From a virus, in IMG/VR virus record IMGVR_UViG_3300026519_000052, positions 1 to 30,035 of that record: 30,035 bases of DNA. The stretch is one strand, 5' to 3'. Each line of letters opens with the position of its first letter. The first letter of the stretch is position 1. The position numbers were made by a program, and so were the translations under genes. Below the pieces are notes generated by a model. That model was given only the letters and a program-made list of their open reading frames with translations. It did no database searches and was not told the origin of the DNA. Positions 1-27,279 of the stretch are shown here, in pieces.

Positions 1-410
1 GGGTTATAATAACTGGCACACTATCCCATAAAGACGGTCATTCAATAACGGATGAGATACCATTAGATATTGACAAAGGATCAGGGCGTAGCAGCGTTCA
101 AGCTGTCGGTTCAACCATATCATACGGTAAGCGTTACCTCGTAGGAATGCTCCTGAACCTCGTATTTGAAGGCGAAGATGATGATGGGCAAACGGCTGGG
201 TTTATTCCTTTGAGCCAAGACCAAGCTTTGGAGATAAAAAAGCTCCTCCAAGAGACTGGCGCGGACGTGAAACAGTTTCTTAATTGGGTTGGCGCACCAA
301 ACGTAGACGAAATGGACGCTAAGAACTATCAGAACGCGGTCGCAACGCTTAAGCGTAAACTTCAAAAATCTGCAGAAGAAGCTAAACCAGCGGAAGAGGG
401 AGCAGAATAA
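1..410 (+). CDS. erf: ERF-family single-strand annealing protein (5' partial)
   Basis: The frame is open from base 3 to the TAA at 408-410, so the start lies outside the window and only about the last 135 residues are seen. The visible part carries the conserved ERF core, QAVGSTISYGKRYL followed by an acidic EGEDDDG stretch, then a variable tail rich in Glu and Ala. ERF proteins (P22 Erf type) bind single-stranded DNA and anneal complementary strands during phage recombination and genome circularisation. A YqaJ-type exonuclease lies about 480 bp downstream, so the two probably form a resect-and-anneal pair. The stop overlaps the next start (TAATG), which suggests translational coupling. The family call is by recognition; the internal ATG at 147 is not the real start because the conserved motif begins before it. 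Confidence 0.8.
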   Translation, partial: VIITGTLSHKDGHSITDEIPLDIDKGSGRSSVQAVGSTISYGKRYLVGMLLNLVFEGEDDDGQTAGFIPLSQDQALEIKKLLQETGADVKQFLNWVGAPNVDEMDAKNYQNAVATLKRKLQKSAEEAKPAEEGAE

Positions 411-664
411 TGGGAAGAATTGGAAAAGCACCATGTTCTCCGCCATGGACTGTAGTTTTTGAAAAAGTTTTTAACAAATTTGGTGAAAATATTTGCAATA
501 TCACGCGCCATATAGAAGAAAAAGAAAACACTAATCTAATAGCCGCTGCCCCTGAAATGCTTGAAGCTTTAGAAATAGCACAACATTGGGGATATGGGCA
601 GACACCTAGTGTTGAAGAAGAAGAAAAGGTACAAAACGCCATAAAGAAAGCGAGGGGATTATGA
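410..664 (+). CDS. small phage protein of unknown function
   Basis: 84 aa, starting inside the stop codon of the ERF gene (TAATG) and ending in an ATGA overlap with the next gene, so it sits tightly within the early operon. The C-terminal half has a NLIAAAPEMLEALE helix of a kind common in small phage proteins of unknown role, followed by an acidic EEEEK stretch. No catalytic motif, signal peptide or membrane segment is visible. The location between two recombination genes is the only clue to its role. Gene reality is well supported by the coupling at both ends. Confidence 0.65.
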   Translation: MGRIGKAPCSPPWTVVFEKVFNKFGENICNITRHIEEKENTNLIAAAPEMLEALEIAQHWGYGQTPSVEEEEKVQNAIKKARGL

Positions 665-888
665 TCGCAGGAGAGCAGATGTTGCCAGAAAACAGAGCTA
701 TGGAGCACATAGAAATTCTTAAAAATAAGATCAAAGAGTATGAAAATATAGAATTAGAACCATATGACGCTGGAATATTTAGTGATAGCGGCGGTGGAAA
801 TGTCGGCTGGTGGCAAGATTATCTCCGCGCCGAACTTGAAAGGGCTTATGAGTTTTATCAGAGCCAATTACCAAAGGAGGATTTATAA
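661..888 (+). CDS. small acidic protein of unknown function
   Basis: 75 aa, coupled to the gene before it by ATGA and to the exonuclease after it by TAATG. An alternative start at the internal ATG of MLPENRAMEH (679) is possible. The product is helical and acidic, with a Gly-rich centre (SGGGNVGW) and many Tyr residues. I recognise no domain. It may be an accessory of the recombination pair, but this is inferred only from position. Confidence 0.6.
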   Translation: MIAGEQMLPENRAMEHIEILKNKIKEYENIELEPYDAGIFSDSGGGNVGWWQDYLRAELERAYEFYQSQLPKEDL

Positions 889-1775
889 TGCTATTTTTCC
901 CAGCCATACATAACAGCGAAGAGTGGTTTGAATGTCGGCGCGGTATGCCAACTTCATCTTGCTTTGGTAAGATTATAAACCCAGAAACAGGAGTAAAAGA
1001 ATACGCTAAATTTGAGGGCGCAGTTGAAATACACGAAGGCACAAAAACTATCGAGCAATTAGCAAAAGAGCTGGATGTCTCGAAAGATACAGTCAAGAAG
1101 TATGTTAAAAAATATCACCCTGATTGTCCTTCGGAAGACTTGCCAAAGCCTAAACTTCTAGCAGGAGCAGAAACCTATGCCCACATGCTTCTTGCGGAGA
1201 TTATTATGGGAGAGAGCCTTGATAAGTTCCCTCCTTCGTTTTGGATGGAGCGTGGCGCACTCATGGAGCAGGAAGCAGCAGACCTCTATCAGTTCGAAAC
1301 AGGACACACGCTTGATCGAGGCGGCTTTATGACGGACGATAAAATGAGATGGGGATCTTCGCCTGACAGACGCATCCTTGATGATAAAGGGGATTGTATA
1401 GGCTTTCTTGAAATTAAATGCCCCGCGCCGTGGACGCATGTTGAGAATTTACTTAAAAAAGAAATTGATAAGACTTATGTTCCACAAGTTCAAGGGCAGA
1501 TGCTTGTTGGTGAAGCTAAGTTTGTAGACTGGTTTTCATACCATCCAGATATGCCCCCATCATTAATACGCACACCGCGCGATGATGATTACATATCTGT
1601 ATTATCGGAGGGACTTATTATGTTTGACAATATGATGTTAAGGAAACTCAAAGAACTCCTTGAAGTCGGTGCTATAGACGAAATCCCACAAAAATCTATG
1701 CCAGAGTTCCATGATGCTATTCAAGAGCTGATAGATAGTGACGGTGACTTTAAAACTACGTTGATGGCTGGGTAA
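888..1775 (+). CDS. YqaJ/lambda-exonuclease-type viral recombinase nuclease with an HTH-like insert
   Basis: 295 aa. In these nucleases one strand of a DNA end is degraded so that an annealing protein can act on the other. Visible motifs in order: W13 and R17-R18 of the N-terminal block; G123-x3-E127 followed by A130; D160 in SSPDRRI; and E175-x-K177 in FLEIKCP, the D...ExK metal-binding core of the PD-(D/E)xK fold. Q199-QxQ-type residues (VPQVQGQM) follow, as is usual in the family. Residues about 47-80 form an extra segment with a helix-turn-helix look (TIEQLAKELDVSKDTVKKYV) between the first and second nuclease motifs. The start follows a strong site (aaaggagg) and overlaps the previous stop. 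It pairs functionally with the upstream ERF protein. Confidence 0.85.
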   Translation: MLFFPAIHNSEEWFECRRGMPTSSCFGKIINPETGVKEYAKFEGAVEIHEGTKTIEQLAKELDVSKDTVKKYVKKYHPDCPSEDLPKPKLLAGAETYAHMLLAEIIMGESLDKFPPSFWMERGALMEQEAADLYQFETGHTLDRGGFMTDDKMRWGSSPDRRILDDKGDCIGFLEIKCPAPWTHVENLLKKEIDKTYVPQVQGQMLVGEAKFVDWFSYHPDMPPSLIRTPRDDDYISVLSEGLIMFDNMMLRKLKELLEVGAIDEIPQKSMPEFHDAIQELIDSDGDFKTTLMAG

Positions 1776-1804
1776 CTTTAAGGAGAAAAAAGCTGAAAAA
1801 ACAT

Positions 1805-1833
1805 TTGACATTAAGGATCAAAGGGCCCATTAT
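1805..1833 (+). promoter_or_regulatory. candidate sigma70-like promoter
   Basis: A perfect -35 box TTGACA (1805-1810), a 17-nt spacer and a -10 of CATTAT (1828-1833, 4 of 6). It lies 37 nt before the start of the 66-aa gene and would let the cassette from 1870 onward be transcribed independently of the recombination genes. Seen by eye only. Confidence 0.4.
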
Positions 1834-1869
1834 TGAGTCACTAGATAACAAAAACCAAGGAGAGCCAAA

Positions 1870-2070
1870 ATGAACCCGATCGAATTTAAAGCTTTTTGTA
1901 AAGAAAGCCGCAAAGACTTCTTTAAAAAATTTCCAGCCCCGAAAACAAAAGAAAGGAACTTTTGGAGAAATGCGAATCGCCATGCGAATAACGCGCTTGA
2001 AGATGGATACTATAACCCTGAATTTTTCTGCGGTTCGGCAAAAAAAATAATCGAATTATTAAAGGCCTAG
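1870..2070 (+). CDS. small basic protein of unknown function
   Basis: 66 aa, rich in Lys, Phe and Asn, with no recognised domain. It has a strong ribosome-binding site (ccaaggag, 8 nt before ATG). The same ccaaggag leader precedes the LRR gene 57 bp downstream, suggesting a shared origin or shared expression level. It is the first gene after the candidate promoter at 1805-1833. A 26-codon reading frame with a CTG start at 1793 ends in an ATGA overlap with it. Confidence 0.55.
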   Translation: MNPIEFKAFCKESRKDFFKKFPAPKTKERNFWRNANRHANNALEDGYYNPEFFCGSAKKIIELLKA

Positions 2071-2127
2071 CCTCCTGCTGCCAGACTTTCAAGCTAAAAG
2101 TAGACCAAAAAACCAAGGAGAATTAAA

Positions 2128-2802
2128 ATGATTATTAAAATTGATGGAGTCGAGTATAGCGAACTACCAAAAGAGGCTGTCTTTGAAACGGCTAAAGAGG
2201 TTCGGCTCCGCGACCTGCCGTTATTGAAAGGGCTGCCGGCCATGCCCGAGGCTGAAGAAGTTTGGCTCCATGACCTGCCGTTATTGACAGAGCTGCCGGA
2301 GATTCCCAATGCTAAAAAGGTTCGGCTCCATGCCCTGCCGTTATTGAAAGGGCTCCCAGCCATGCCCAATGCTGAAGATGTTTTGCTCTATGCCCTGCCG
2401 TTATTGAAAGGGCTGCCGGCCATGCCCGAGGCTGAAGATGTTTTGCTCCATGACCTGCCGTTATTGACCGAGCTACCGGCCATGCCCGAGGCTGAAGAAG
2501 TTTGGCTCCATGACATGCCGCTATTGACCGCGCTGCCGGAGATTCCCAATGCTAAAAAGGTTTGGCTCCATGACATGCCGCTATTGACCGCGCTGCCGGA
2601 GATTCCCAATGCTGAAGATGTTTTGCTCTATGCCCTGCCGTTATTGAAAGGGCTCCCAGCCATGCCCAATGCTGAAGATGTTTTGCTCCGTGACCTGCCG
2701 TTATTGACAGAGCTGCCGGCCATGCCCACTGCTAAAAAAGTTCGGCTCCGCGACCTTCCGTTGATTTCAGGCTATGATATGAAAAAATATAAGATTAATT
2801 AG
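2128..2802 (+). CDS. leucine-rich repeat protein built from 20-residue tandem units
   Basis: 224 aa. After a 22-residue leader come nine full 20-residue units (from about residue 23) and a partial tenth, then a short Lys-rich tail. A typical unit reads EDVLLYALPLLKGLPAMPEA. Spacing of LP, LL and the Val-x-Leu strand is regular and resembles the 20-residue LRR class known from YopM/IpaH proteins, which form curved solenoids used for protein binding. No enzymatic domain, signal peptide or membrane segment is attached. The ribosome-binding site is strong (ccaaggag). Repeats are almost identical in DNA, so the gene is recently expanded or homogenised. The partner is unknown; a protein-binding role in the host cell is inferred. 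Confidence 0.7.
   Translation: MIIKIDGVEYSELPKEAVFETAKEVRLRDLPLLKGLPAMPEAEEVWLHDLPLLTELPEIPNAKKVRLHALPLLKGLPAMPNAEDVLLYALPLLKGLPAMPEAEDVLLHDLPLLTELPAMPEAEEVWLHDMPLLTALPEIPNAKKVWLHDMPLLTALPEIPNAEDVLLYALPLLKGLPAMPNAEDVLLRDLPLLTELPAMPTAKKVRLRDLPLISGYDMKKYKIN
2194..2763 (+). repeat. 60-bp in-frame tandem repeat array
   Basis: Nine complete 60-bp units plus half of a tenth, with no length variation, so the frame is kept. Units differ by block swaps rather than scattered changes: the first two residues are EE, KK or ED; the third block is WLHD, LLYA or RLHA; then LKG, TEL or TAL; then PAMP or PEIP. The units at 2341-2400 and 2641-2700 share an unusual synonymous variant (ctcccagcc) and differ at only a few bases near the end, which points to copying between units. 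Confidence 0.9.
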
Positions 2803-2817
2803 TAAAAGGAGAAAAAA

Positions 2818-3000
2818 GTGAAAAAAGATGAAATGAGGACGGCGAGAAAAAAACTTGGCTTAACACAAGAAATGCTAGCCAAAAAGCTAGGGCTATCTGG
2901 CTCTAGGGTAGTTCGCTCTTATGAGCTAGGAGAGAAAAGGCCAGGAGGGCCTGTCGTAAAATTGATGGAGATATTTTTAAGGGAGCTTGAAGAAAAGTGA
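2818..3000 (+). CDS. XRE/Cro-CI family HTH transcriptional regulator
   Basis: 60 aa, GTG start preceded by aaaggag at the right distance; 15 bp after the LRR gene. Residues 5-55 form a single HTH_3-type domain: TARKKLGLTQEMLAKKLG, then SGSRVVRSYELGEKRP, where Q, the recognition helix and the Y-E-x-G-x-R-P ending match the family. There is no extra dimerisation or peptidase domain, so it is a minimal regulator of the size of Cro or of restriction-modification controller proteins. The reading frame continues after its TGA into the methyltransferase fragment downstream. Target operators were not identified. Confidence 0.8.
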   Translation: MKKDEMRTARKKLGLTQEMLAKKLGLSGSRVVRSYELGEKRPGGPVVKLMEIFLRELEEK

Positions 3001-3297
3001 AAAAACATAAAAGAGAACGCGATTGTTTATGGCATCCAAGGAAATATGATTGGAAGAGAAGACCATAACGGCCCTCAAGGTTCAGGTTATCAAGAAGAAA
3101 TATCTTACACATTGAACACCACAGACAAACATGCTGTAGCTGGAACATTAACCACATCATACGGTTCGCGTGGAGTTGATATGGATCAAATAGGCAAATT
3201 AGGAATACGAAGGTTGACACCTATCGAGTGCGAGCGACTTCAGGGCTTCCCAGATAACTACACAAACGTTCCTTGGCGCAGAAAAGAATTAGTTTAA
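3001..3297 (+). pseudogene. internal fragment of a C5-cytosine DNA methyltransferase
   Basis: The readable part contains GIQGNMIGREDHNGPQGSG and RRLTPIECERLQGFPDNYT, both highly typical of the C-terminal target-recognition and motif IX region of Dcm-type enzymes. The similarity starts upstream of the only ATG (3046), at about codon 3016-3022, with no start codon there. The frame stops at PWRRKELV before the usual GNSMA motif X. The cofactor loop, the PCQ catalytic motif and the ENV motif are absent. A protein could still be made from ATG 3046 (83 aa), but it cannot methylate DNA alone. It sits in the same frame as the XRE gene, separated by that gene's TGA. A decayed gene is the simplest reading. 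Confidence 0.7.
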
Positions 3298-3351
3298 GAT
3301 TGCTTTGAACGTAACGATAATGTATCACATAACTGAAAGGATACAGATACA

Positions 3352-3567
3352 ATGAAAAAACAGCCCCTTACAGACAAACAAAAAGAGGTTCTTTCTTACA
3401 TAAAGGATTACATCTCTGAAAACGGATATTCTCCATCTTGGGAGGAGATCGCAGATAGATTTGACACAGGCATTACGAATGTTCGCCGTTACATCAACTT
3501 TCTGGTGCAAAAAGGTCACATCACAAAAGACAATACCACTCGCCCGCCAGAGATAACGATGGTTTGA
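3352..3567 (+). CDS. stand-alone LexA-type winged-helix DNA-binding protein
   Basis: 71 aa. It matches the N-terminal DNA-binding domain of LexA: LTDKQKEVLSYIKDYISENG, then YSPSWEEIADRF and a final wing region ending in PPEI. LexA's C-terminal self-cleaving peptidase with its Ser-Lys dyad is missing, so RecA-triggered cleavage is not expected. Single-domain versions occur in phages as small regulators. The ribosome-binding site is gaaagga. It is the last gene before the terminator at 3720-3750. It could compete for host SOS boxes or act on a phage operator; neither can be told from sequence alone. Confidence 0.75.
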   Translation: MKKQPLTDKQKEVLSYIKDYISENGYSPSWEEIADRFDTGITNVRRYINFLVQKGHITKDNTTRPPEITMV

Positions 3568-3719
3568 ATAGCTCTGGCCTAAACAGTCTCGAAGATAATC
3601 AGAGCGTCATTTTTGCTCTTGAGGAGCACAGAGGAAAAACAAAAGCTTCAGAGGTTCGTACATTTTAACGAATAATAAACTTATGTGATCTATGTTAGAC
3701 ATTCCCCCACACACAAACT
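3568..3719. other. non-coding gap before the convergent terminator
   Basis: About 150 bp with no convincing gene on either strand. It contains one copy of a 19-nt sequence (3604-3622) repeated exactly at 28496-28514. The rest is AT-rich with no clear promoter. Confidence 0.5.
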
Positions 3720-3750
3720 AAGCCCTGCTTTAACGAGCGGGGCTTTTTTT
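3720..3750 (+). terminator. rho-independent terminator at convergence point
   Basis: A 9-bp stem (AAGCCCTGC / GCGGGGCTT, one G-T pair) with an 8-nt loop is followed by seven T residues on the plus strand. It ends the rightward early operon. The leftward block stops right at it (spanin stop at 3749), but the T tract favours termination of rightward transcripts. Confidence 0.85.
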
Positions 3751-4213
3751 ATTTGTCTGGCTTGTTTTTGGAAGCCCAAGTTTTATTTATGAATGATTGG
3801 CAAGATATGAGCTGAAGGCGATGCTTCTCCGCTAGACCTGCGTAATCAAATAAGGCTCCAGTATCAATTCCATTTCTTTGAGCATGTCCGTCTCTGGGTT
3901 CTGCATCACGTCTGCTGGTGGTGTCGGTAACTGGTACACACACGGATGGGCGCACCCGCTTAAGGTGAGCAATACGGCGGTTAAGGTTAGAGATTTGGGT
4001 TTGAAAGTCACTGGAAACCTCCTGCGTTAATTGTTTGTCTTCTTCGCACTGTTTTACGATTTCTTGCTGCGCCTTGGCTATATCCCGATCGTGCGATGCC
4101 CTAATAAGGCTAACGTGGACATTGTGAAGGGCAAAGCCTATTAAAGCCATACCTGCGGCTCCTGCGGCGAATTTCCAATACTTCAAAAGAATGACGATCA
4201 TTTTCGCTTTCAT
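3749..4213 (-). CDS. Rz-like i-spanin
   Basis: 154 aa. A basic start is followed by one membrane segment (about residues 14-30, FAAGAAGMALIGFAL) and then a long periplasmic region predicted as coiled coil (KAQQEIVKQCEEDKQLTQEV), which is the layout of inner-membrane spanins. The later LNRRIAHLKRVRP stretch, the Cys-containing proline segment and the terminal LQLISCQSFI are features I associate with Rz-type proteins of alphaproteobacterial phages. Spanins link inner and outer membranes and complete lysis after holin and endolysin. It is the last gene of the leftward block and starts in an ATGA overlap with the gene before it. I saw no clear separate or embedded o-spanin lipoprotein. Confidence 0.65.
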   Translation of the reverse strand: MKAKMIVILLKYWKFAAGAAGMALIGFALHNVHVSLIRASHDRDIAKAQQEIVKQCEEDKQLTQEVSSDFQTQISNLNRRIAHLKRVRPSVCVPVTDTTSRRDAEPRDGHAQRNGIDTGALFDYAGLAEKHRLQLISCQSFINKTWASKNKPDK

Positions 4214-18021: not shown

Positions 18022-18432
18022 TTATTTCTTTGCAGTTTTTGACTTCTCATCGTTTGATTTGAAGCCTTTTTTTGTAGCTGGGTTGGTGTTTTTGGCAGTG
18101 CCTTCTTTGGCATCTTCATTGACGGACAAATCCAGCTCCTGCCTTAGATCATCGATAGTGCTTTCAAGCGTATCAATGTGGTCTTCAGCTTTTTCAAGTT
18201 GCTCTTGAAGATCAACAACCTGAAGCTCGGTGTCTTTGAGAGTGGCAGTAACCTTTTCAAGAGTTTTTGCAAGCTCACCAGCAGCACCTGCAGGCGGGGC
18301 AGACTTCTTAAGGCCTTTTGCTTCACGAGGGCTATCAGCCCAACCTTTACCCAGAGCGTCTTCATCATCTTTTGTTGCACAGAGACAAGGCTCATCGGAT
18401 TTATGATATTTCCACTTTGGATATTCAGACAT
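18022..18432 (-). CDS. small head-associated protein with acidic coiled coil
   Basis: 136 aa. The N-terminal 40 residues (YPKWKYHKSDEPCLCATKDD, LGKGWADSP) form a short module often found in phage head-region proteins. Residues about 55-105 form an acidic coiled coil (LQVVDLQEQLEKAEDHIDTL), and the tail is Lys-rich (KKGFKSNDEKSKTAKK). It lies between the possible decoration protein and gp4. Probably a minor head component or assembly factor; the evidence is compositional and positional. Confidence 0.55.
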   Translation of the reverse strand: MSEYPKWKYHKSDEPCLCATKDDEDALGKGWADSPREAKGLKKSAPPAGAAGELAKTLEKVTATLKDTELQVVDLQEQLEKAEDHIDTLESTIDDLRQELDLSVNEDAKEGTAKNTNPATKKGFKSNDEKSKTAKK

Positions 18433-18469
18433 TGTGTTTTCCTTTCATTGAGTTGTTTTAAACGATAAC

Positions 18470-18489
18470 GAAGGGGGCGAACCCCCTCC
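18470..18489 (-). terminator. stable UUCG-loop hairpin between head genes
   Basis: The leftward transcript reads GGAGGGGG-TTCG-CCCCCTTC, an 8-bp stem (one G-U pair) with a UUCG tetraloop. It is followed only by a weak T-rich stretch, so it may be a partial terminator, a 3'-end protection element or a processing site. Position after the coat and possible decoration genes would help keep tail-gene expression lower. Confidence 0.45.
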
Positions 18490-18501
18490 GCATCAATTCA
18501 T

Positions 18502-18990
18502 TTAGCTGACAGTTGCAGAGAACGGAGTTGCTTCTATCCCTGTAGCAGAACCACGGACATTTACAGCCCATGTATTTGCAGCAACGTCAATTAGCTCGAT
18601 AAAGTCACCTTTTATACCTCCAGTTGTAGAGCCGTTCAAAGTGATAGTGTCGCTGGTCGCCGCAGTTTCAAACGCAACCACGGTATTTGCCGCATCTTGC
18701 GCATTCACTGCCTGGCCAACCAACACATCATCGCCGTTCGCCACTTTGATAGTCGTGTCAGATGTGACTGTCGTACCAAGATACAAACGGAAGTGAGCAC
18801 CATTACCAGTTGCAGCTGGGAGCGTTACCGCTTGCCCAGCCGCTAAGTTCAAAGTGGTCACAACTCCTTGATGCTTAGTTCCTAGCGTCAAAGTAGTGTC
18901 AGTTACATTTACCGGAGGACGAGGGTTGATCCCGTCAGGGAATGCTCCATCAGGACTTCCGGTGATTGGTGTAGTTGTAGAATTAACCAT
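18502..18990 (-). CDS. beta-rich protein next to coat, possible head decoration protein
   Basis: 162 aa, very rich in Thr, Ala, Val and Gly with no Cys. N-terminal region has GSPDGAFPDGINPRPPVNV; the rest alternates strands (LTLGTKHQGVVTTLNLAAG, AHFRLYLGTTVTSDTTIKVA). It is encoded immediately after the coat gene, and its strong site (aggag) and place suggest a highly expressed virion protein such as a capsid decoration protein. No known decoration motif is recognised, so the call is tentative. Confidence 0.5.
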   Translation of the reverse strand: MVNSTTTPITGSPDGAFPDGINPRPPVNVTDTTLTLGTKHQGVVTTLNLAAGQAVTLPAATGNGAHFRLYLGTTVTSDTTIKVANGDDVLVGQAVNAQDAANTVVAFETAATSDTITLNGSTTGGIKGDFIELIDVAANTWAVNVRGSATGIEATPFSATVS

Positions 18991-19023
18991 TTTCAGGTCT
19001 CCTTTTCATGTTTGAGTTTGAGA

Positions 19024-20241
19024 TTAGCCAGAAATCCGAGCAGCAAGTTCAGGTCTTAGGGTTTTCCATCCGCCCAGAACATCGATACGCATCGGAGCGC
19101 GGTCGTTCGTGATGTCGTATGCTTTTACGACACGCATGGACATACCAAGACGCTTAGATGTGACACGCTTAGCCATCCAAACACCAGATGGAAGCTCCAA
19201 GTCCGCACAAGCGAAGGTGAAGGCATCTTTGTGGAATGCTAAGTTCTGTGGAGTTGCGGTGTTGGAAGCTCCGAATACTGATACAACCGCATTATCTGCG
19301 ATCCCGCCAGTAACGGTTTGGTTCTGACCGCTCGTAACAAGAGCAGGAGAAACGCTAACAGTCATATCGCCACTGCCGTTTGCTGTCGCATTGGCTGTAA
19401 CAACGAACTGACGAAGCTCACCAGTAGATTGACGGTTTTGAGGGTTAACAGCATATACACCGGCGAAAGTTATAATATCGCCTGCTTTAAGCTGATCTGC
19501 CGAAGTCCATCCATCTAACGCAATTGAAGAACCTGAAGAAACAGCGCCATTCGCAAGAACAGCACCTCCTGCTACGTTTGCAGCATAAGTTCCAATTGTG
19601 TGTGACACAACGTTTTGATCCATTTCAAACTTGAACCCAAGAGCGCGTCCCATACGACCAGAATGATACTGATCTGAAATAGTCTTAGCTGGGTTTTGCA
19701 AGGTCAGGTTTGCATTGGAGATCGTAGCTTGAGCCAGAGGATTGATAACGCAGCAACGTTGATCGTCCACAGGTGCGGCTTCGTTGTCCATTTTAACACC
19801 AGCCATTAGATAGGTCAGGTTGGTATTTGGCGTTGTGCCTGGAGTTCCCACATGATTGTAAATGTCCTTGTAAAGCTCCATTCCGTCACGGTCGATCATA
19901 TTGGCGACTGTAGCGATCTGTGGCTTAAGAACACGGTCACTGAAGCTATCAATATCAAGCGTCAGTTCTTTAGTGGTGAAGGATACGTCACAACCATATT
20001 GAGTATCGAGTGTGACAGGTACTGAAGTCTCGTTGAAGCCTTCGACATTGATTGTCGGGCCACGGCGACCTTCGAAGCGAGCAGGTTTACGAACGTTGAC
20101 CGTTTGACCGATCTTAGCTCCATCTCTGGCAAACTGGTCATCGTATTCACGAGTAACGTGTTTGGTAAACATGAGTTGGTTTTCAAGAACAGCCAGTGCT
20201 TCGTTTGTAATTTGGCTGATCGTTAGAAGCGTGTTGGACAT
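19024..20241 (-). CDS. major coat protein, P22 gp5 family
   Basis: 405 aa, slightly shorter than P22 coat (430). The N-terminal helix (NTLLTISQITNEALAVLENQ), GQTVNVRKPARFEGRRGP, and VPVTLDTQYGCDVSFTTKEL are typical of this branch of HK97-fold coat proteins. Residues about 220-320 contain the inserted beta domain (LKAGDIITFAGVYAVNPQNR, ELRQFVVTANATANGSG). The C-terminus (SMRVVKAYDITNDRAPMRID, VLGGWKTLRPELA) is conserved. It assembles on the scaffold encoded immediately upstream. The start is 26 bp after the scaffold stop with a clear ribosome-binding site (aaggagg). Confidence 0.9.
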   Translation of the reverse strand: MSNTLLTISQITNEALAVLENQLMFTKHVTREYDDQFARDGAKIGQTVNVRKPARFEGRRGPTINVEGFNETSVPVTLDTQYGCDVSFTTKELTLDIDSFSDRVLKPQIATVANMIDRDGMELYKDIYNHVGTPGTTPNTNLTYLMAGVKMDNEAAPVDDQRCCVINPLAQATISNANLTLQNPAKTISDQYHSGRMGRALGFKFEMDQNVVSHTIGTYAANVAGGAVLANGAVSSGSSIALDGWTSADQLKAGDIITFAGVYAVNPQNRQSTGELRQFVVTANATANGSGDMTVSVSPALVTSGQNQTVTGGIADNAVVSVFGASNTATPQNLAFHKDAFTFACADLELPSGVWMAKRVTSKRLGMSMRVVKAYDITNDRAPMRIDVLGGWKTLRPELAARISG

Positions 20242-20267
20242 GATGTCCTCCTTTTAGAGTTACGGGT

Positions 20268-21221
20268 TTAAAAACTCCGCCGTCTCTGTGATCGCTCCTT
20301 CAAATATTCTTCATAGTTTTGATCGTCTGGTGACTTTTTCGACTTCGAAGAACCTTTAACAGGAGTTATCGGCGGCGGTGACTTCGATGTTTTCTTAGCA
20401 GTACTGGCTTCTTTCTTGCCTTCACCTTTCGGAACTTCAAGACGTGCTTCGATTTTGGCGACCTCTTTATTTATTTGCAAAATAGTCATGCTAGCCATCT
20501 TTTTACCGATCTTGGGGTTTTTGGCGATGTAATATGCAACATCTGGCCCCATTTCGCTATCAAGAAGAGCCTGCTGCATGCCAATTGTAAGCGGGCCGTC
20601 ATAATCTTCAATAACCTCGTCAAAGTCTTCGTGTCTCGTCTTCGCATCAGCAATGCCTTCCTCGTACTTCTGAACTTTAGTAGTTTGCGCGTCCTTGAAC
20701 TCCGTTTTCTTTGCTTCGGTCTGACGTGTCTCCTCGGCTTTTTTAAACTTCTCATCGACTTTCCAGTCTGTGAGAGCTTCCGAGTACTCGTCATACGTTT
20801 CAAAATCCTTGGGTGTTGGCTTCTTTGCAGGCGCGTCTTCAGCTTTCTTTTGATCTTTGCTCTCCTCCTCTGAAGAACGATCTTTTGTACCCAGAGCTTT
20901 TTTTCTCCAGTACTCTTTTTCGTCTTCAAGGCGAGCTATCTTTTTTTGAAAGCCACCGCGTTTGCGTTTTTTCTGCCGACCACTGTCTTCATCGTCCGAC
21001 TGATCTTCATCATCACCCTTATCATCGTCTTCGTCCGCACCATCATCGTTGTTGTCACTGTCTTCGCTTTCTTGAGCGTTTTTGGCGGCAACAGCTTCTT
21101 GAGCCAGCCTTACCTTTTCGCTTTCGTCTTCGTTTTCAGTAACCACATAGTCACGTTCGTTTTTCGTAGCATCATCAGAGATTTGCTCTCCAGAGCCTTG
21201 TAGGTTTTGATCGTCAGCCAT
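20268..21221 (-). CDS. capsid scaffold protein (P22 gp8 role)
   Basis: 317 aa, close to P22 gp8 in length, almost all helical and highly charged. Residues about 45-85 are strongly acidic (NNDDGADEDDDKGDDEDQSD) and followed by a basic KKRKRGG. The C-terminal end is basic and Ser-rich (KKTSKSPP, KGSSKSKKSPDD, EYLKERSQRRRSF), as expected for a coat-binding tail. No enzyme motif. Placement between portal and coat makes scaffold the natural call. A candidate promoter with a palindrome lies just upstream. Confidence 0.75.
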   Translation of the reverse strand: MADDQNLQGSGEQISDDATKNERDYVVTENEDESEKVRLAQEAVAAKNAQESEDSDNNDDGADEDDDKGDDEDQSDDEDSGRQKKRKRGGFQKKIARLEDEKEYWRKKALGTKDRSSEEESKDQKKAEDAPAKKPTPKDFETYDEYSEALTDWKVDEKFKKAEETRQTEAKKTEFKDAQTTKVQKYEEGIADAKTRHEDFDEVIEDYDGPLTIGMQQALLDSEMGPDVAYYIAKNPKIGKKMASMTILQINKEVAKIEARLEVPKGEGKKEASTAKKTSKSPPPITPVKGSSKSKKSPDDQNYEEYLKERSQRRRSF

Positions 21222-21271
21222 AAAGTTTTCCTTCTGTTGGGTTCCAGTCCCGAAATAGGACGCCAGTTCCA

Positions 21272-21307
21272 GTTACAAAATTGTAACAGATTTTACACCA
21301 ATGTCAA
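21272..21307 (-). promoter_or_regulatory. candidate promoter for scaffold/coat with overlapping palindrome
   Basis: On the minus strand: TTGACA (21302-21307), a 16-nt spacer and TACAAT (21280-21285). The dyad GTTACAA-aa-TTGTAAC (21272-21287, 7-bp arms) sits over the -10 box, as an operator would. The promoter is about 60 nt before the scaffold start, in the 108-bp gap after the portal gene. It could boost scaffold and coat expression. Confidence 0.5.
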
Positions 21308-21329
21308 AAGGCACTTTTTGATATGTTTT

Positions 21330-23363
21330 CTATTGCGATATATCTTGCTCTTGTTGAGTAGATAAAGGCTCGTTATTTCCGAGCTGATTTAGACGCGCAG
21401 ATATGTCATTGAGTTGCTTTTGTAGGATGGCGTTATTGGCCGCCCCCGATTGCTTCATTTGCTCAAGAACCAGCCTATTTTGAAGCTCTGAATTCTTCAT
21501 ACGCTCTTTGCTTTCAAGTTCAGCTTGCTTGTTATCGATTGTACCTTGCGTCTTCTCTAGGGCTTCGGTTAGATGCCCGATCATTTCATCCTGTTTAGCC
21601 ATACGATCCTGAATTTTCTTAGGCGTTTCTGGCTCTTCTTCTTCACCCTTAAGAACACCTTCAGGTAACAATTTCTTGAGACGCTCGGCTATATCGGACG
21701 CGCCAGGCCAATCCATATTTTTAACCATGAGATCACCTGCAATATCCATGAGTTTAGGATAAGACTGCGTGATTTCTACCATGCTGGCAGCAGCTTCCTG
21801 ACGGCGAGTATTGTAAGATGGCCCAGTAGAGACAACGATATCATACTTTCCTGTGGTCATGTCATATATGCGGCGTTCGCCCTTTTCGCTTTCAAAATAT
21901 GCGTTGATTTTTACGAGTTCGCTTTCACCATCTTCGTGAAGAATACGGATTACACGCTCCGCATCATAAATTTTGGGGATAAGATCAACCAATATCACAC
22001 CGAGATACCGTATAGCGCGGGAAAGGTTGTCGATATAATGGAAATTGGCAACATCGCCCTCGGCTTGTCTGGCGAGAATGGCTCTGCCCGACTGCTCATT
22101 TCCTTTTGCTCCAAGTGAAGCATCATATATTCCAGTTGTCCCCTTCAAATCTTCGGATGCCTGGCGAATACCCAGAGCGAGGGCTTGGACTGGTGGCTCT
22201 GCGCTATTTCTCTGTGGCGAAGGTGCTATTTGTCCTCCAATAGTAACTGGTTTGTACACAAGTCGGGAGTATGCCTTGGTGTTCGCGTTATCCCAGAACC
22301 GCTCATAACCTTCGTCCTGTCCTTCAGCCATGATAAACGGTGCTTTGGGAGCGAGTGCGAGTGCTTCTGTAAAGGCTGTGGAATTGTAGTTATACAGGCG
22401 TTGAGCGTCCATGCTGTCCGAGACCATTCCCCGAATAACGCGCTTCCCGTCTATGTCGTAATCCTCACCAAGAACAGGAATAACAGGGATAAAGTTACCA
22501 GCCCAATCTTGCTTATCAAGCTCCTCGAGAGCTGTAATTTTACTCCAAACAACCTTTTTGACGGTTGTATCGCGCTCATTAACGATATTGAACTCTATGC
22601 CTGCTTCTTCGAGCTGTTTTTTATCGTCTTCATCGATCACGCGCTTATCATCTAGCAGGAATATTTTCTTGTGGGTTTCTTCTATTCGGAAGTATTCAGC
22701 AATTCGGATAAAGTCCTCATTCATCCAATCGGGCTGTGTATTGCCAACGCTTGCCATCTGATAGTCAGCTGTTTTATTCCCATCGTAATCATTTATAAAA
22801 TCATCTTTCGGAATATCAGAAACTATAAAGCACCATTTAGCATCGGAGTAATCATGCTCAATGCATGATGGGTCAAAGTAAACAGTAAACGGATTTTTAA
22901 TCCTCTTGATCTTGATCTCCTGGTCAAAACTATCATCGTAACAATACTCGGTTAGAACTCGGAAGTAACCAAGACCGATAGAAGCCTGCATATCGCAAGC
23001 CGTGTCATACGCAACGTCCGCCTGCGAGGATGACTGTATTTGACGGCACATACCGTTGATGATCTCTGCGGTTTCTTGTGTTGCATCGGCGGTCGGCAGG
23101 ACTTTGATTGACGGTCTATTCTGCCTTGCATCGTTCGTTACTTGGCGGATGAACTTCGGGAGCTGGTTAATGGTGATACAAGGGCGGTGCTGCAGGGCGC
23201 GTTCTTGCTTGATGTTATCGGGCCACTGATCGCCTGCGCGGAACTTAAGCTCTTCCAAGGCGCGTTTTCGGGTGTCGCTTTCTGCTTCCTCTGCAAGTTT
23301 AAAACGTTTTAAAGCCGTTTTTATTGTCTTGTTGTCCGTAAGTGAAATAGCTTCTTCTAGCAT
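21330..23363 (-). CDS. portal protein, P22 gp1-like
   Basis: 677 aa, close to P22 portal (725). Landmarks are the N-terminal helical part with RHRPCITINQLPKFIRQVTN followed by RQNRPSIKVLP, the wing region with a VYFDPSC-type turn (NPFTVYFDPSCIEHDYSDAK), and GVILVDLIPKIYDAERVIRI. A long Gln- and Glu-rich helical barrel follows (about 590-650, LTEALEKTQGTIDNKQAELE) and the tail ends QQEQDISQ. Portal rings form the DNA entry vertex and bind terminase and gp4. The ribosome-binding site is ctggagat. Family recognition is strong. Confidence 0.9.
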   Translation of the reverse strand: MLEEAISLTDNKTIKTALKRFKLAEEAESDTRKRALEELKFRAGDQWPDNIKQERALQHRPCITINQLPKFIRQVTNDARQNRPSIKVLPTADATQETAEIINGMCRQIQSSSQADVAYDTACDMQASIGLGYFRVLTEYCYDDSFDQEIKIKRIKNPFTVYFDPSCIEHDYSDAKWCFIVSDIPKDDFINDYDGNKTADYQMASVGNTQPDWMNEDFIRIAEYFRIEETHKKIFLLDDKRVIDEDDKKQLEEAGIEFNIVNERDTTVKKVVWSKITALEELDKQDWAGNFIPVIPVLGEDYDIDGKRVIRGMVSDSMDAQRLYNYNSTAFTEALALAPKAPFIMAEGQDEGYERFWDNANTKAYSRLVYKPVTIGGQIAPSPQRNSAEPPVQALALGIRQASEDLKGTTGIYDASLGAKGNEQSGRAILARQAEGDVANFHYIDNLSRAIRYLGVILVDLIPKIYDAERVIRILHEDGESELVKINAYFESEKGERRIYDMTTGKYDIVVSTGPSYNTRRQEAAASMVEITQSYPKLMDIAGDLMVKNMDWPGASDIAERLKKLLPEGVLKGEEEEPETPKKIQDRMAKQDEMIGHLTEALEKTQGTIDNKQAELESKERMKNSELQNRLVLEQMKQSGAANNAILQKQLNDISARLNQLGNNEPLSTQQEQDISQ

Positions 23364-23460
23364 TTTGTATCTCCAGTAGGTTCTCTTTTTCTAAAGTGGA
23401 TTTGTTCACATCTTCGTAAATTTTACCACCTTGAATGACTTTTAAAATAGTTTTAGGCAT
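23299..23460 (-). CDS. possible 53-aa gene between large terminase and portal
   Basis: The 139-bp gap between large terminase and portal contains an ATG frame starting MPKTILKVIQGGKIYEDVNK that runs 62 bp into the portal gene in another frame. The site before the ATG is weak (aaagaa). The N-terminal part reads like a small soluble protein; the overlapping C-terminal part is unremarkable. It may be real but weakly supported. No function known. Confidence 0.3.
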   Translation of the reverse strand: MPKTILKVIQGGKIYEDVNKSTLEKENLLEIQNARRSYFTYGQQDNKNGFKTF

Positions 23461-23502
23461 CGCAATTCTTTACACAATATATGAATTTTAACATTTAGAC
23501 AA

Positions 23503-25101
23503 TCACCCGCCGAGCCATCCCTGACCACCATAATCACCACCAGCAGAAAATACAGGGTCAATAATGGCTTTTTCTTTAGGCCATATCAATTGCAATTTTG
23601 GTTCAAAAAGCCGCGCTAGAGCATCTAGCATATCATCGTGGATGGGGACTGGAAATGGTTTGAACTCTTCATTAATGAAATCTTCAACAAGATCGCGGGT
23701 TTTTCCTGTGGAATCTGTGTAATTCAGTGTCCGCGGGAAGAGTATGCGACCCTGCTCAAAATAGGGAATAAGTCTTCTAATTCGATCATTCTTTGATGTT
23801 GAGCCTCCAACTTCCGTTATTTCAAAGTCGTAGTTCTCAATCTCCATTTGCCCTTTGATATGGTCTATATCTGCGTCCTTTCCATATTTCTCATATCGAA
23901 CGCCGTCTTGCCGTATTGGTTTATATTTACGGTGCCATTCCATCATTAATCTGGTGCGCTCTGTGAGATTTAGGCGATCACGTACGATATTCAGTATGCG
24001 TATTTTCTGATCAGGGCATAGGAGCGCAACCCAACCGCATGTGTAATCGTTCGTTTTTTTCTTATCGTTCGCTGGATCAAACAGCAGATATACATTACCG
24101 ATTTTGAGATTGACGTTATCGTAATAACGCATCCAAGATGCTTTAAAGCCCTGCGTATCATCGGCAGTTGGGTTCATCATCAACTGACAACCAAAGATAT
24201 ATGGACCTTGGTCACGGCGTTTTTCTGCCAGCCGTTCAGGCGTAAGCAACACAGGAGAGCCGTCTGGAGTTCCGTCATCGGTTGCAGCATAAATGCGCGG
24301 GATAGCAGATTTGCTGTCCATAATTGACCGATAGGCGTCGTTGAAATGATAGCGAGTGCCGATAAAGCGTCTTAATCCACCCTCTGCGCCAAGATTGTAT
24401 GAGTTTTGTAGGCTTTCGAGTGTTTTCTTCATCATTTCAGGAGTTGTTACACTGGCGGGAACAACCACATCATCATAAACAAGAACTCCAAAGTGCTTCC
24501 CGATAGGCTGCCCATCCACAACGCCCCAAGCTTCGATAGTCTGCTCTTTCGGGTTAGATTTACGGCGAACGCTTATGCCCTCGTCCTCTGACCACTTGGG
24601 CGCACTACGCTTAGGATCAGACCATAATATTTCAGGATACAGTTCCTTCAGGACTTGGTTTTGCTCAAACTCCTGCTTTATTTGGCGCAGGAAGCCTTTA
24701 GCAATAGGGCGAGAGTGGGAGAATATGCCGAATGTAAGCTCTTCAGGGAGGATAGGATCATCGCCGTGGCTGGCTATAATATCTTGAATGGTCTTGCCAA
24801 ACGTTATGATCGTGGATTTGTAGTGCTCACGCGCCCAGAGATCAAGATATCCGTCTGGATCGTCTTCAACTTCACGGCATCTTTCGAATAGCCATTTATG
24901 CTCGATGTCTGCGCGGTTCAGGAGGTATCGTAGGAGAAAATAGAGATCGGTGCGCCCTAAATACCTAAGATGATGTGTCCGCTCCATCTCTGGCAAACTG
25001 CGCAAGGAACTCATCAGTTGCGGGTAGGAGGACAGTTTCATTCTTGATTGCCCCGCCGTCTTTTCCTGTGTGCTCGATTTGAGTTCTTTCGCTCCAGCCA
25101 T
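23503..25101 (-). CDS. terL: terminase large subunit (packaging ATPase and nuclease)
   Basis: Up to 532 aa. ATPase: LWAREHYKST (88-97) as the degenerate Walker A, VLVYDD (206-211) as Walker B. Nuclease: D342 in LLFDPAND and the HDDMLDAL block (488-495) supply RNase-H-like acidic residues. It translocates DNA into the prohead through the portal and makes the headful cut. The long start (25101) overlaps the small-subunit gene by 137 nt but has a good site (aaggat, 7 nt before). In-frame ATGs at 25014 and 24987 would cut the overlap to about 50 or 23 nt and still keep the conserved RTDLYFLLRYLLNRADIEHK region. The exact start is open. Confidence 0.9.
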   Translation of the reverse strand: MAGAKELKSSTQEKTAGQSRMKLSSYPQLMSSLRSLPEMERTHHLRYLGRTDLYFLLRYLLNRADIEHKWLFERCREVEDDPDGYLDLWAREHYKSTIITFGKTIQDIIASHGDDPILPEELTFGIFSHSRPIAKGFLRQIKQEFEQNQVLKELYPEILWSDPKRSAPKWSEDEGISVRRKSNPKEQTIEAWGVVDGQPIGKHFGVLVYDDVVVPASVTTPEMMKKTLESLQNSYNLGAEGGLRRFIGTRYHFNDAYRSIMDSKSAIPRIYAATDDGTPDGSPVLLTPERLAEKRRDQGPYIFGCQLMMNPTADDTQGFKASWMRYYDNVNLKIGNVYLLFDPANDKKKTNDYTCGWVALLCPDQKIRILNIVRDRLNLTERTRLMMEWHRKYKPIRQDGVRYEKYGKDADIDHIKGQMEIENYDFEITEVGGSTSKNDRIRRLIPYFEQGRILFPRTLNYTDSTGKTRDLVEDFINEEFKPFPVPIHDDMLDALARLFEPKLQLIWPKEKAIIDPVFSAGGDYGGQGWLGG

Positions 25102-25471
25102 ATTTATATCCTTGGGTTTTTAAGTAGAAATGAGCGTCTTGGATGCTGCCATCTATTCCACGACGATAAACTCCTTCTCCCATCTTCGCAACTGCTTCTG
25201 CCTTGGCTGTTTCAAGTTCGAGCTTGTAATGACGTGAGAGTGTGTCGACTGATATTTGAAGTTGCGCTGCGACTTCTGCATAGGGAACGCCATAAGCGAC
25301 TAAAGCTTTTATAATACGTTTATTTTCTTCTGTCTTTTCGTGCTTAGGCTGCCCCCAGCTTCCTTCAGGTGCGCCGTGTGTTACAGGATTAGGAGAGCCA
25401 TCAGATAAAACCTTACGCTCATCAGATTTAAATCCTTTTTTCGGTGTTTTGCGCTCGTACTTTTTAACCAT
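24965..25471 (-). CDS. terS: terminase small subunit
   Basis: 168 aa. Its start overlaps the end of the methylase gene by 8 nt and its stop lies inside the large-subunit frame. After a basic N-terminus, residues about 47-82 form an HTH: NKRIIKALVAYGVPYAEVAA followed by QISVDTLSRHY, used in small terminases to recognise the pac site. A helical oligomerisation region (LETAKAEAVAKMGEGVYRRG) and the KTQGYKYGWSERTQIEHTG segment, common to this family, follow. Position just before the large subunit supports the call strongly. Confidence 0.85.
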   Translation of the reverse strand: MVKKYERKTPKKGFKSDERKVLSDGSPNPVTHGAPEGSWGQPKHEKTEENKRIIKALVAYGVPYAEVAAQLQISVDTLSRHYKLELETAKAEAVAKMGEGVYRRGIDGSIQDAHFYLKTQGYKYGWSERTQIEHTGKDGGAIKNETVLLPATDEFLAQFARDGADTSS

Positions 25472-26675
25472 TTACAAGCTCCGCTTTCTCGCCTGTGAAC
25501 TCTTCCCATCGGCGTATAACAACATCACAGTAGCGCGGGTCGAATTCCATCGCATAAGCTTTACGTCCAGTTTTCTGCGCGGCAATAACCATTGTGCCGG
25601 AGCCGACAAAAAGGTCTAGAACCGCATCCCCTGGCTTCGTGTTGTTGAGGATTTGATACTCGAACAAGGCAACTGGCTTCATCGTGGGGTGATCTATGGA
25701 CTTTGTGGGGCGATCAAATTCAAGGATGGTGGTTTGCTTACGATCGGCAGCCCAGTAGTGCGCTGCGCCGTCTTTCCATCCGTACAGGCAAGGCTCGTGC
25801 TTCCAATGATAGTCTTGCCGTCCCATAACCATGGTGTTTTTGAGCCAGATCAAGCACTGGCGGATCGTCCATCCTGCTTCTTGAGCTGCACCTCGGAAGT
25901 TATATCCCTCACTATCAGCATGCCAAATGTAGAACGCTCCACCTTTTCGGAGATTATTGTTTGCATTTTTGAAGCAAGACACGAGGAAATCTCGGAAATT
26001 AGCATCAGACATCTGATCGTTTTCAATTTTAAGTGCATCTTTAGTCTTTCCTTCGTACGCCACGTTGTACGGTGGGTCGGTTAAAAGCATATCTGCTAAA
26101 TAACCGTCCATAAGGGTTTCAACTGCGCTGGTGTCGGTACTATCGCCGCACATAAGGCGGTGTTGTCCGAGCTTCCATATCTGCCCAGCCTTTGATGTTG
26201 GCTCTTCAGGAGTTTCGGGAACATCATCAGGATCTGTATTGCCGTCTTTGCTGTCAAAGTTGAGCTTTGAAATATCTCCAAGTGAGAAGCCTGTAAGCTC
26301 TACGTTGTATCCAAGCTCTTTCAAATCTCCGAATTCAGCAGCAAGCAGACCATCGTCCCAGCCAGCATTATCAGATAGCTTGTTATCGGCTATCACGTAA
26401 GCTTTTTTTTGTGGATCACTCCAGTTCGAAGCTACGATGCAAGGAACTTCATTAATACCAAGATTTGAAGCAGCGAGCAGGCGAGCGTGTCCAGCCAGCA
26501 CTATATCTTTCTCATCAATTAAAATAGGCATAGTCCAGCCCCACTCTTGTATCGATGCTTCAATTTGCTTAATTTGCTCTTCGCTATGAGTTCGGCTATT
26601 ATTCTCATATCCAACCAGATTATCAGTTGATATCATGAATATTTTATTTGCTGGCCATGCAATAGTTTTGCTCAT
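25464..26675 (-). CDS. ParB-like domain fused to a DNA N6/N4 methyltransferase
   Basis: 403 aa. Residues 1-110 are a ParB/Srx-type domain with NNSRTHSEEQIKQIEASIQE and GHARLLAA (62-69). Residues 165-395 are a methyltransferase with DPPY at 200-203 (motif IV) preceding FVGSG at 356-360 (motif I), so the motif order is the beta type. HPTMKP (329-334) is also present. It would add methyl groups to adenine or cytosine in a sequence-dependent way, perhaps to protect phage DNA or mark the pac region; no endonuclease partner is seen. Such fusions often lie just before small terminase genes. The ribosome-binding site aaggaga is 11 nt from ATG. Confidence 0.85.
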   Translation of the reverse strand: MSKTIAWPANKIFMISTDNLVGYENNSRTHSEEQIKQIEASIQEWGWTMPILIDEKDIVLAGHARLLAASNLGINEVPCIVASNWSDPQKKAYVIADNKLSDNAGWDDGLLAAEFGDLKELGYNVELTGFSLGDISKLNFDSKDGNTDPDDVPETPEEPTSKAGQIWKLGQHRLMCGDSTDTSAVETLMDGYLADMLLTDPPYNVAYEGKTKDALKIENDQMSDANFRDFLVSCFKNANNNLRKGGAFYIWHADSEGYNFRGAAQEAGWTIRQCLIWLKNTMVMGRQDYHWKHEPCLYGWKDGAAHYWAADRKQTTILEFDRPTKSIDHPTMKPVALFEYQILNNTKPGDAVLDLFVGSGTMVIAAQKTGRKAYAMEFDPRYCDVVIRRWEEFTGEKAELVNG

Positions 26676-26730
26676 GCTCTTTCAAATCTCCTTAAAATTC
26701 TCTGCAATTGTAGCATATTAATCCAAGTTA

Positions 26731-27279
26731 TCAAGCGGATGATTTTTCAGAGAATTTTAATATTCTGCTTTTTACGGATTTATAATAACTTGTTTTTTGT
26801 AAAATCCTTGATAGGATTTCACCAGATGGCGGCAGAAATGGATCTTCTTTGGTCGCCCCACGCCAGAGGTCATCGCAGGTATGGGCAATCGCAATTAGGC
26901 TAGATTTATCGCCAACAGCTGCGCTGGCTATATCCGAAATAATTACGCCATCCTTTCCGACTTCGCGCGCTGGGAAGTGCGCTAGCAGCCTAGTTAGCCA
27001 GTAAACAGCATTTTCGTAATCGGCTTTAATTTCAGTAAATTCCAAGATTTTTAAGGCGGTCTTCGCGTCCCGCTGGTTGTCTGGTTTTATCATCCATAGC
27101 TTGATTGTGCGCATTTTCGAGAGAATATCCGAGACCTCTTCCGCTTTTAGGTTTCTCTGGTAGTCTATAATCGTTTTCCCAGCTTTTATCTCTAATCCAT
27201 CGGAACATATCGGCGTTTTTTTGTCCTTCATTTTCACAATATCTGCGGTATTTGGCAATACCTTTTCCAATTCGCTCAT
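26731..27279 (-). CDS. protein of unknown function, overlapping the replication gene
   Basis: Up to 182 aa. The ATG at 27279 has a near-perfect ribosome-binding site (aaaaaaaggag, 6-7 nt away) yet lies 248 nt inside the DUF1376 gene in a different frame. The best-looking protein-like stretch is after residue 78 (YENAVYWLTRLLAHFPARE, then LIAIAHTCDDLWR and FLPPSGEILSRIL). The pattern W-x-x-R-L with a C-terminal P-S-G-E resembles parts of small phage replication accessory proteins, but I cannot place it. Non-ATG starts near 27045 would remove most of the overlap. Confidence 0.5.
   Translation of the reverse strand: MSELEKVLPNTADIVKMKDKKTPICSDGLEIKAGKTIIDYQRNLKAEEVSDILSKMRTIKLWMIKPDNQRDAKTALKILEFTEIKADYENAVYWLTRLLAHFPAREVGKDGVIISDIASAAVGDKSSLIAIAHTCDDLWRGATKEDPFLPPSGEILSRILQKTSYYKSVKSRILKFSEKSSA

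What the first reader, a model, noticed from the sequence alone, without database searches (positions are those of the whole stretch)
2128..2802. LRR protein of homogenised 60-bp units in a phage early region
Nine exact-length 20-residue LRR units plus a partial one, differing by swapped blocks and sharing rare synonymous variants between non-adjacent units (2341-2400 and 2641-2700). This indicates ongoing recombination or gene conversion, perhaps changing the binding surface rapidly. The unit length matches the YopM/IpaH LRR class, but no toxin or ligase domain is attached. A phage protein meant to bind a changing host target, or an anti-defence factor, would show such a pattern.
Basis: partly seen in the sequence, partly recalled or inferred. 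Interest (0 to 1): 0.6.

Follow-up and report, generated by a model that had tools for sequence, protein, structure and literature searches.

The report
Phage leucine-rich-repeat protein in accessory cassette
A P22-like phage co-binned with a Micavibrio-type bacterium carries, in a small gene cassette that a sister phage lacks, a repeat protein predicted to fold into a curved binding scaffold whose nine near-identical units have been reshuffled by recombination; what it binds is unknown.

Summary
ORF 2128-2802 encodes 224 aa with nine gapless 20-residue units (2221-2760), a diverged N-terminal unit and a C-terminal stub. AlphaFold2 gives a confident LRR solenoid (pLDDT 90, pTM 0.83). Recombination among units is supported: 60/136 site pairs fail the four-gamete test, PHI-type tests give p about 1e-4 to 1e-2 at codon level, and units 3 and 8 share a 59-nt exact block. 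I found no sequence relative in phages, plasmids, IMG/VR, GTDB contigs or several hundred related genomes.

New: sister-phage contigs lie in the same assembly. One (C9) has the same flanking genes but lacks the whole 1.5-kb segment (66-aa ORF, LRR, XRE regulator, cytosine-methylase remnant). The two sister contigs carry other repeat proteins. So the LRR gene is an optional cassette beside the phage's Erf/YqaJ recombination genes.

Not supported: the strict YopM/IpaH class (asparagine absent, unit partition 12+8 instead of 11+9), and selection focused on the binding face (all non-core positions vary alike, dN/dS about 1). 'Rapid change' cannot be tested without an allele. Best reading: a cytosolic, phage-made host-protein binder, probably counter-defence or host takeover; the target is not shown.

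The parts
2128..2802 (+). LRR protein gene, 224 aa, pI 4.8
   Evidence: ORF; AF2 solenoid, pLDDT 90.3, pTM 0.83; YopM/SspH/IpaH LRRs by sequence and fold; pI
2221..2760 (+). nine exact 60-bp (20-aa) LRR units, typical unit LLTELPAMPEAEEVWLHDLP
2161..2220 (+). diverged first unit; the preceding residues act as N-terminal cap (short strands, then a helix)
   Evidence: sequence; DSSP on model
2330..2388 (+). 59-nt block identical to 2630-2688, five units away; carries the rare CTC-CCA synonymous pair
1776..3275 (+). 1.5-kb segment (66-aa ORF, LRR, XRE, MTase remnant) absent at the same locus in sister contig C9
   Evidence: C9rc 1938-3158 matches window 536-1771 (86%) and C9rc 3189-3469 matches window 3276-3556 (91%)
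1805..1833 (+). sigma-70-like promoter TTGACA-17-CATTAT at the head of the cassette
   Evidence: consensus match only
1870..2070 (+). 66-aa ORF of unknown function; RBS context repeated before the LRR gene (1850-1873 and 2108-2131, 88%)
2818..3000 (+). XRE-type HTH regulator, 15 nt after the LRR stop codon
   Evidence: HTH_3 2.6e-9
3046..3297 (+). C-terminal remnant of a DNA cytosine-C5 methyltransferase
   Evidence: phrog_16528 3.4e-18; Pfam 3.3e-6
888..1775 (+). YqaJ/RecE-like exonuclease with a helix-turn-helix insertion
   Evidence: Pfam YqaJ 4.5e-16; phrog_149 1.6e-22
1..410 (+). 3' part of an Erf ssDNA-annealing protein gene, cut by the contig start
   Evidence: phrog_155 4.6e-15; complete gene in C9
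3352..3567 (+). LexA-type HTH gene, first shared gene after the cassette
   Evidence: 91% DNA identity in C9
3720..3745 (+). intrinsic-terminator-like hairpin ending the early operon

Best explanation
The gene is an optional (moron-like) cassette in the early operon of a P22-type podophage co-binned with a Micavibrio-like alphaproteobacterium. It encodes a small cytosolic LRR solenoid with no catalytic domain. It works as a pure protein-binding scaffold, made early in infection (or from its own promoter), that binds and blocks a host protein. The most likely role is counter-defence or host takeover. The array was built by repeated in-register unequal exchange or gene conversion of 60-bp units, for which the neighbouring Erf/YqaJ genes are a plausible motor. 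Shown: the solenoid prediction, the intra-array recombination, and presence/absence between sister phages. Inferred: early expression, cytosolic site, target class, and the part played by Erf/YqaJ.
For: Single-sequence AF2 model with one strand per 20 aa, pLDDT 90; the best structural matches are LRR domains used to bind partner proteins. Mosaic array. All nine non-core positions vary; of 11 core positions only two change residue, conservatively (M/I, L/M), so the fold is under constraint. Early-operon position beside Erf and YqaJ. Cassette missing in the sister phage at an 86-91% identical locus. Promoter-like site at its head. Array GC 55% against 44% for the phage contig. No hydrophobic N-terminal segment is seen in the sequence.
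Against: No homologue of known function and no expression data. PADLOC has no match (it lists defence, not anti-defence, proteins). Variation is not concentrated on the concave face: 21 of 84 triples of variable positions do as well or better. Pooled dN/dS of about 1 also fits loose constraint. The adjacent XRE gene and the promoter could instead mean expression from a lysogen.
Confidence: 0.45

Rival explanations
1. Lysogenic-conversion moron: expressed in a lysogen from its own promoter under the adjacent XRE regulator, it alters the host (for example superinfection exclusion or regulation), as the P22 ORFan pid does for the host dgo operon.
For: Cassette with its own promoter-like site (10 of 12 matches) and an XRE gene 15 nt downstream; absent in the sister phage; precedent for P22 moron ORFans (PMC3573128, abstract).
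Against: No integrase among the ORFs scanned, so lysogeny is not shown; the promoter scan found 7 sites against 3.5 expected.
Confidence: 0.25
2. The repeat array drifts by neutral replication slippage and unequal exchange; mosaicism reflects only its tandem nature, with no selection for a changing surface. The LRR has a fixed target or a dispensable role. (This concerns how the array evolves and can hold together with the other explanations.)
For: dN/dS about 1 pooled, similar variation at concave and other exposed sites; the gene is dispensable in the sister phage; the other repeat gene, in sister contig C21, shows the same mosaicism.
Against: The hydrophobic/proline frame is strictly kept (pN 0 at strand-inward positions, 0.048 at the other frame positions), so the protein is maintained.
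Confidence: 0.35
3. LRR plus XRE form a toxin-antitoxin-like or autoregulated pair that stabilises the phage.
For: 15-nt spacing; the XRE resembles the MqsA/HipB/Y4mF antitoxin HTH.
Against: No catalytic or membrane-active domain in the LRR; XRE hits are generic HTH matches below the family cut-offs in NCBIfam; phage XRE regulators are common.
Confidence: 0.08
4. Virion or adhesion protein (LRR used for receptor binding).
For: LRR-like repeats occur in the annotated 'putative tail protein' gp93 of Synechococcus phage S-CBWM1.
Against: The gene lies in the + strand early operon, opposite to and apart from the - strand structural genes; gp93 has a different repeat type.
Confidence: 0.05

Closest known systems
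Bacterial-class LRR domains of type III effectors (YopM, IpaH, SspH, SlrP)
   Same: 20-residue units, LPxLP variable segment, non-catalytic LRR solenoid; PDB phmmer 1.8e-5 (IpaH7.8) and 3.2e-4 (YopM); VIA Z 19.4 (YopM, rmsd 2.8, 208 aligned) and 18.2 (SspH2, rmsd 2.6, 209 aligned)
   Different: Phage gene. No NEL ligase domain or secretion region. The HCS asparagine is replaced by Leu/Met in all units. HCS of 12 (AxxVxLxxLPxL) plus VS of 8 (xxLPxMPx) instead of 11+9. Units highly homogeneous.
LRR proteins of giant viruses (BFVD)
   Same: Best viral structural matches: A0A481YQM5 E=3.2e-4, TM 0.66; Marseillevirus LCMAC201 TM 0.73
   Different: 18-23% identity; eukaryotic viruses; no evidence of common descent beyond the fold
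S-CBWM1 gp93, annotated putative tail protein
   Same: Phage protein with repeats containing CSSLTSFPALP
   Different: Longer, different repeat (about 23 aa, BspA-like by my reading); annotated as tail, not early
phrog_21719-type LRRs in same-order genomes
   Same: LRR-like tandem repeats of about 20 aa in related bacteria
   Different: GAPxxVxGxFxCxxNxLTSL repeat, no LPxLP; a different LRR type
Hexapeptide-repeat (GISAGW) and FNAPxLxxSGxIxL repeat proteins of sister contigs C9 and C21
   Same: Early-region tandem-repeat proteins in sister phages; the C21 one is predicted as a beta-solenoid with 20-aa units
   Different: Unrelated repeat classes; different loci in the operon

Membership tests
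Leucine-rich repeat (LRR) fold | tandem LxxLxL-type units forming a curved parallel-strand solenoid | tested here: met
   AxxVxLxx in every unit; AF2 one strand per 20 aa, pLDDT 90; VIA Z up to 19.4, 541 of 570 chains at Z>=8
Bacterial-class LRR (YopM/IpaH/SspH type) | unit length 20-21 | tested here: met
   exactly 20 residues, no indels
Bacterial-class LRR (YopM/IpaH/SspH type) | VS with two Leu-Pro motifs, xxLPxLPxx (N-subtype, 9 residues) | tested here: inconclusive
   LPxLP-like LP[AE][MI]P in all nine units, but the VS is 8 residues by my partition (definition from PMC5976695)
Bacterial-class LRR (YopM/IpaH/SspH type) | 11-residue HCS LxxLxLxxNxL with Asn/Cys/Ser/Thr at position 9 | tested here: not met
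   position 9 is Leu or Met in all nine units and the spacing gives a 12-residue HCS
NEL E3-ligase LRR effectors (IpaH/SspH) | C-terminal NEL ligase domain | tested here: not met
   the protein ends 13 residues after the last full unit; no NEL match in Pfam or NCBIfam, only a sub-threshold SspH2 hit over the LRR
P22-type podophage (genome context) | P22-like portal, terminase large subunit and major head protein | tested here: met
   phrog_156 2.5e-142, phrog_38 1.4e-48, phrog_283 2.8e-78; P22-like portals 40-45% identical
Moron / accessory cassette | present in one phage and absent at the same locus of a close relative, with own promoter | tested here: inconclusive
   absence in sister contig C9 shown; promoter is only a consensus match
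Anti-defence protein | restores infection of a host carrying a defence system | not testable with these tools
   needs an experiment

The most novel reading that the evidence does not exclude
Phages of this lineage keep a swappable 'binder' gene in the early operon, filled by unrelated repeat scaffolds (LRR, 20-aa beta-solenoid, hexapeptide repeat). The phage's own Erf/exonuclease pair reshuffles their units to retarget a changing host defence protein: a phage counterpart of a variable-receptor system.
Probability: 0.1. Interest if true: 0.8.

Novelty: new variant of a known kind. Interest (0 to 1): 0.42.

Why it matters
Phage-made LRR binders are little described, and this one comes with a natural gene-absent sister at the same locus and an array that records recombination. 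If it binds a host defence protein, it would be a compact natural repeat scaffold whose specificity can be changed by unit exchange, and phages co-binned with Micavibrio-type bacteria would be a place to look for more. If not, it still shows tandem-unit recombination at work beside a phage recombination module.

Tried and rejected
(1) Homologue searches with the protein: phages tblastn to E=10 (none); plasmids (only E 5-7, among them a NEL-type LRR protein); IMG/VR and GTDB patterns (none); 104 family genomes and 385 class genomes, a few in common: only the window. (2) A profile of overlapping four-unit blocks (A1): family genomes, PDB, IMG/VR: only the window and weak YopM/IpaH7.8 hits. (3) A generic LPxLP LRR probe found S-CBWM1 gp93 and unannotated Listeria phage records; gp93 was read and has another repeat type. 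(4) phrog_21719 hits in related genomes are another LRR type. (5) Record L091 (human faecal) holds a long protein with longer LRRs, not the same type. (6) A fixed, non-recombining array: rejected by the PHI-type tests. (7) Selection focused on the concave face: not supported. (8) DNA-mimic idea: pI 4.8, but the outward strand residues are E/K/D, W/R/L and H/Y/R, not an acidic face, so not favoured. (9) End-overlap (circular contig) test: no terminal repeat in the window. (10) Repeat scan of the 70 portal-bearing IMG/VR loci: the only array like these 20-aa solenoids was C21's own; the loci cover early regions only in part. (11) Exonuclease search of IMG/VR for syntenic early regions: none.

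Full report
WHAT IS THERE. The window is one whole contig (C6, 30,035 bp) of a 1.74-Mb, 34-contig assembly. It is phage in character throughout: P22-type portal, terminase and major head protein on the - strand (P22-like portals 40-45% identical), and a short + strand early operon at both contig ends. A host gene from another contig of the assembly (glycyl-tRNA synthetase) is 91% identical to a Micavibrio sp. MAG, so the bin is a Micavibrio-like alphaproteobacterium. That the phage infects it rests on co-binning only.

THE GENE. ORF 2128-2802 encodes 224 aa. Nine units of exactly 20 residues occupy 2221-2760, preceded by a diverged unit and a short cap and followed by a stub. AlphaFold2 from the single sequence gives pLDDT 90.3 and pTM 0.83, with one strand per unit. 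Foldseek's top PDB hits are the LRR domains of SspH1/SspH2; VIA-align gives YopM Z 19.4 (rmsd 2.8, 208 aligned) and SspH2 Z 18.2, but many other LRRs follow within about 3 Z units, so this shows an LRR fold and does not fix a subfamily.

LRR CLASS. Published bacterial-class units have an 11-residue HCS (LxxLxLxxNxL) and a 9-residue VS (xxLPxLPxx) (PMC5976695). Here the strand frame AxxVxLxx is followed by Leu/Met-Pro-Leu-Leu, then xxLP[AE][MI]Px: 12 plus 8, with no asparagine. So length and LPxLP match, and the asparagine ladder does not. It is a close cousin of, and not a clean member of, the YopM/IpaH class. There is no ligase domain.

RECOMBINATION. The synonymous pair CTC-CCA occurs only in units 2341-2400 and 2641-2700; around it 59 nt are identical. 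Sixty of 136 informative site pairs are incompatible with any single tree of units without repeated mutation. Incompatibility is lower for neighbouring sites than for shuffled ones (nucleotide level p<=0.0002; codon level p 0.0001-0.011), the mark of exchange in tracts. Assembly error is unlikely, because the contigs overlap by 127 nt and the longest exact repeat is 59 nt. What is not shown is that this is recent or adaptive. Pooled dN/dS is 0.99. The strand-outward positions 13, 15 and 17 (pN 0.35) vary little more than other polar positions (0.30), whereas strand-inward positions do not vary at all. My split into exposed and core positions was partly made after seeing the variation, so the 1.54 against 0.24 ratio is descriptive only.

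SISTER PHAGES. Searching the assembly with the portal and with the contig ends found two more phage contigs. C21 (15,415 bp; same length as IMGVR_UViG_3300026519_000107, and matching the fetched part of that record) is 84% identical to window 18222-27397. C9 (4,402 bp) carries PAPS-reductase-like, Erf, exonuclease, LexA-HTH and DnaQ-like genes. The last 127 nt of the window equal the first 127 of C9 (reverse complement) and the reverse complement of the first 127 of C21 exactly, so all three meet in the assembly graph. Which piece belongs to which phage cannot be settled here. In C9 the exonuclease (86% DNA identity) is followed directly by the LexA-HTH gene (91%): the 1.5 kb at window 1776-3275 is absent, and only a short stretch shared with the end of the methylase remnant is left. 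The LRR gene is therefore accessory. The segment begins with a promoter-like TTGACA-17-CATTAT, and imperfect 21-nt RBS-like repeats (1780-1800, 2806-2826) flank the 66-aa ORF and LRR pair, a possible exchange point (inference). The array is 55% GC in a 44% GC contig.

A RECURRING THEME, WITH CAUTION. C21 encodes a different 20-aa-unit repeat protein in its early operon (3027-3887 -; 12 units; AF2 beta-solenoid, pLDDT 84; also mosaic, PHI-type p<=0.0002). C9 ends inside a hexapeptide-repeat (GISAGW) protein, a type found in 12 IMG/VR loci. Three contigs with three unrelated repeat proteins is suggestive, but three is few, they sit at different loci, and repeat proteins are common in phages.

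HOW IT LIKELY WORKS. A small acidic LRR scaffold without a catalytic domain and with no visible export signal acts by binding. Its place between the recombination genes and the early terminator (3720-3745) and its absence in a sister phage fit a host-directed accessory protein; counter-defence or host takeover is the most likely class, a lysogen-expressed moron the main rival. Neither is tested. The Erf/YqaJ pair next door is a plausible driver of unit exchange (inference from known annealing/exonuclease systems).

LIMITS. No homologue was found in any collection searched; metagenome contigs could not be searched. Pattern-based scans find close relatives only, so absence is weak evidence that the protein is unique. 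The literature searches returned no paper describing a phage early LRR protein of this kind, in an open-licence library only.

Noticed in passing
L089 (C21) 3027-3887, - strand: Sister phage gene for a 20-aa-unit beta-solenoid (APQLVKSGDINLGDFKYDFN-like, 12 units). It starts with the same MKNETTELM leader as window ORF 28789-29067, so the window phage may have lost it, or C21 gained it, by recombination between leaders.
   Followed up: partly
L179 (C9), first 270 bases (- strand): Contig ends inside a hexapeptide-repeat (GISAGW) protein gene; relatives in 12 IMG/VR loci; no Pfam or PHROG match.
   Followed up: partly
3046-3297: C-terminal remnant of a DNA cytosine methyltransferase; C9 keeps only a short stretch of its end, so the locus seems to have lost a methylase in steps.
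   Followed up: partly
888-1775: The YqaJ exonuclease carries a helix-turn-helix insertion (residues about 49-77) that differs from the C9 copy more than the rest of the protein does.
   Followed up: no
29909-30035: Window end, C21 start and C9 start share exactly 127 nt: assembly-graph junction of sister phages in one bin.
   Followed up: yes
25464-26675: ParB-like plus N6/N4 DNA methyltransferase fusion next to the terminase genes (PADLOC MTase_II 2.1e-135).
   Followed up: no
L006, L009, L011, L012: One same-order genome (G115) holds ten matches to a GAPxxVxGxFxCxxN-type LRR family, an expanded repeat family in these bacteria.
   Followed up: no
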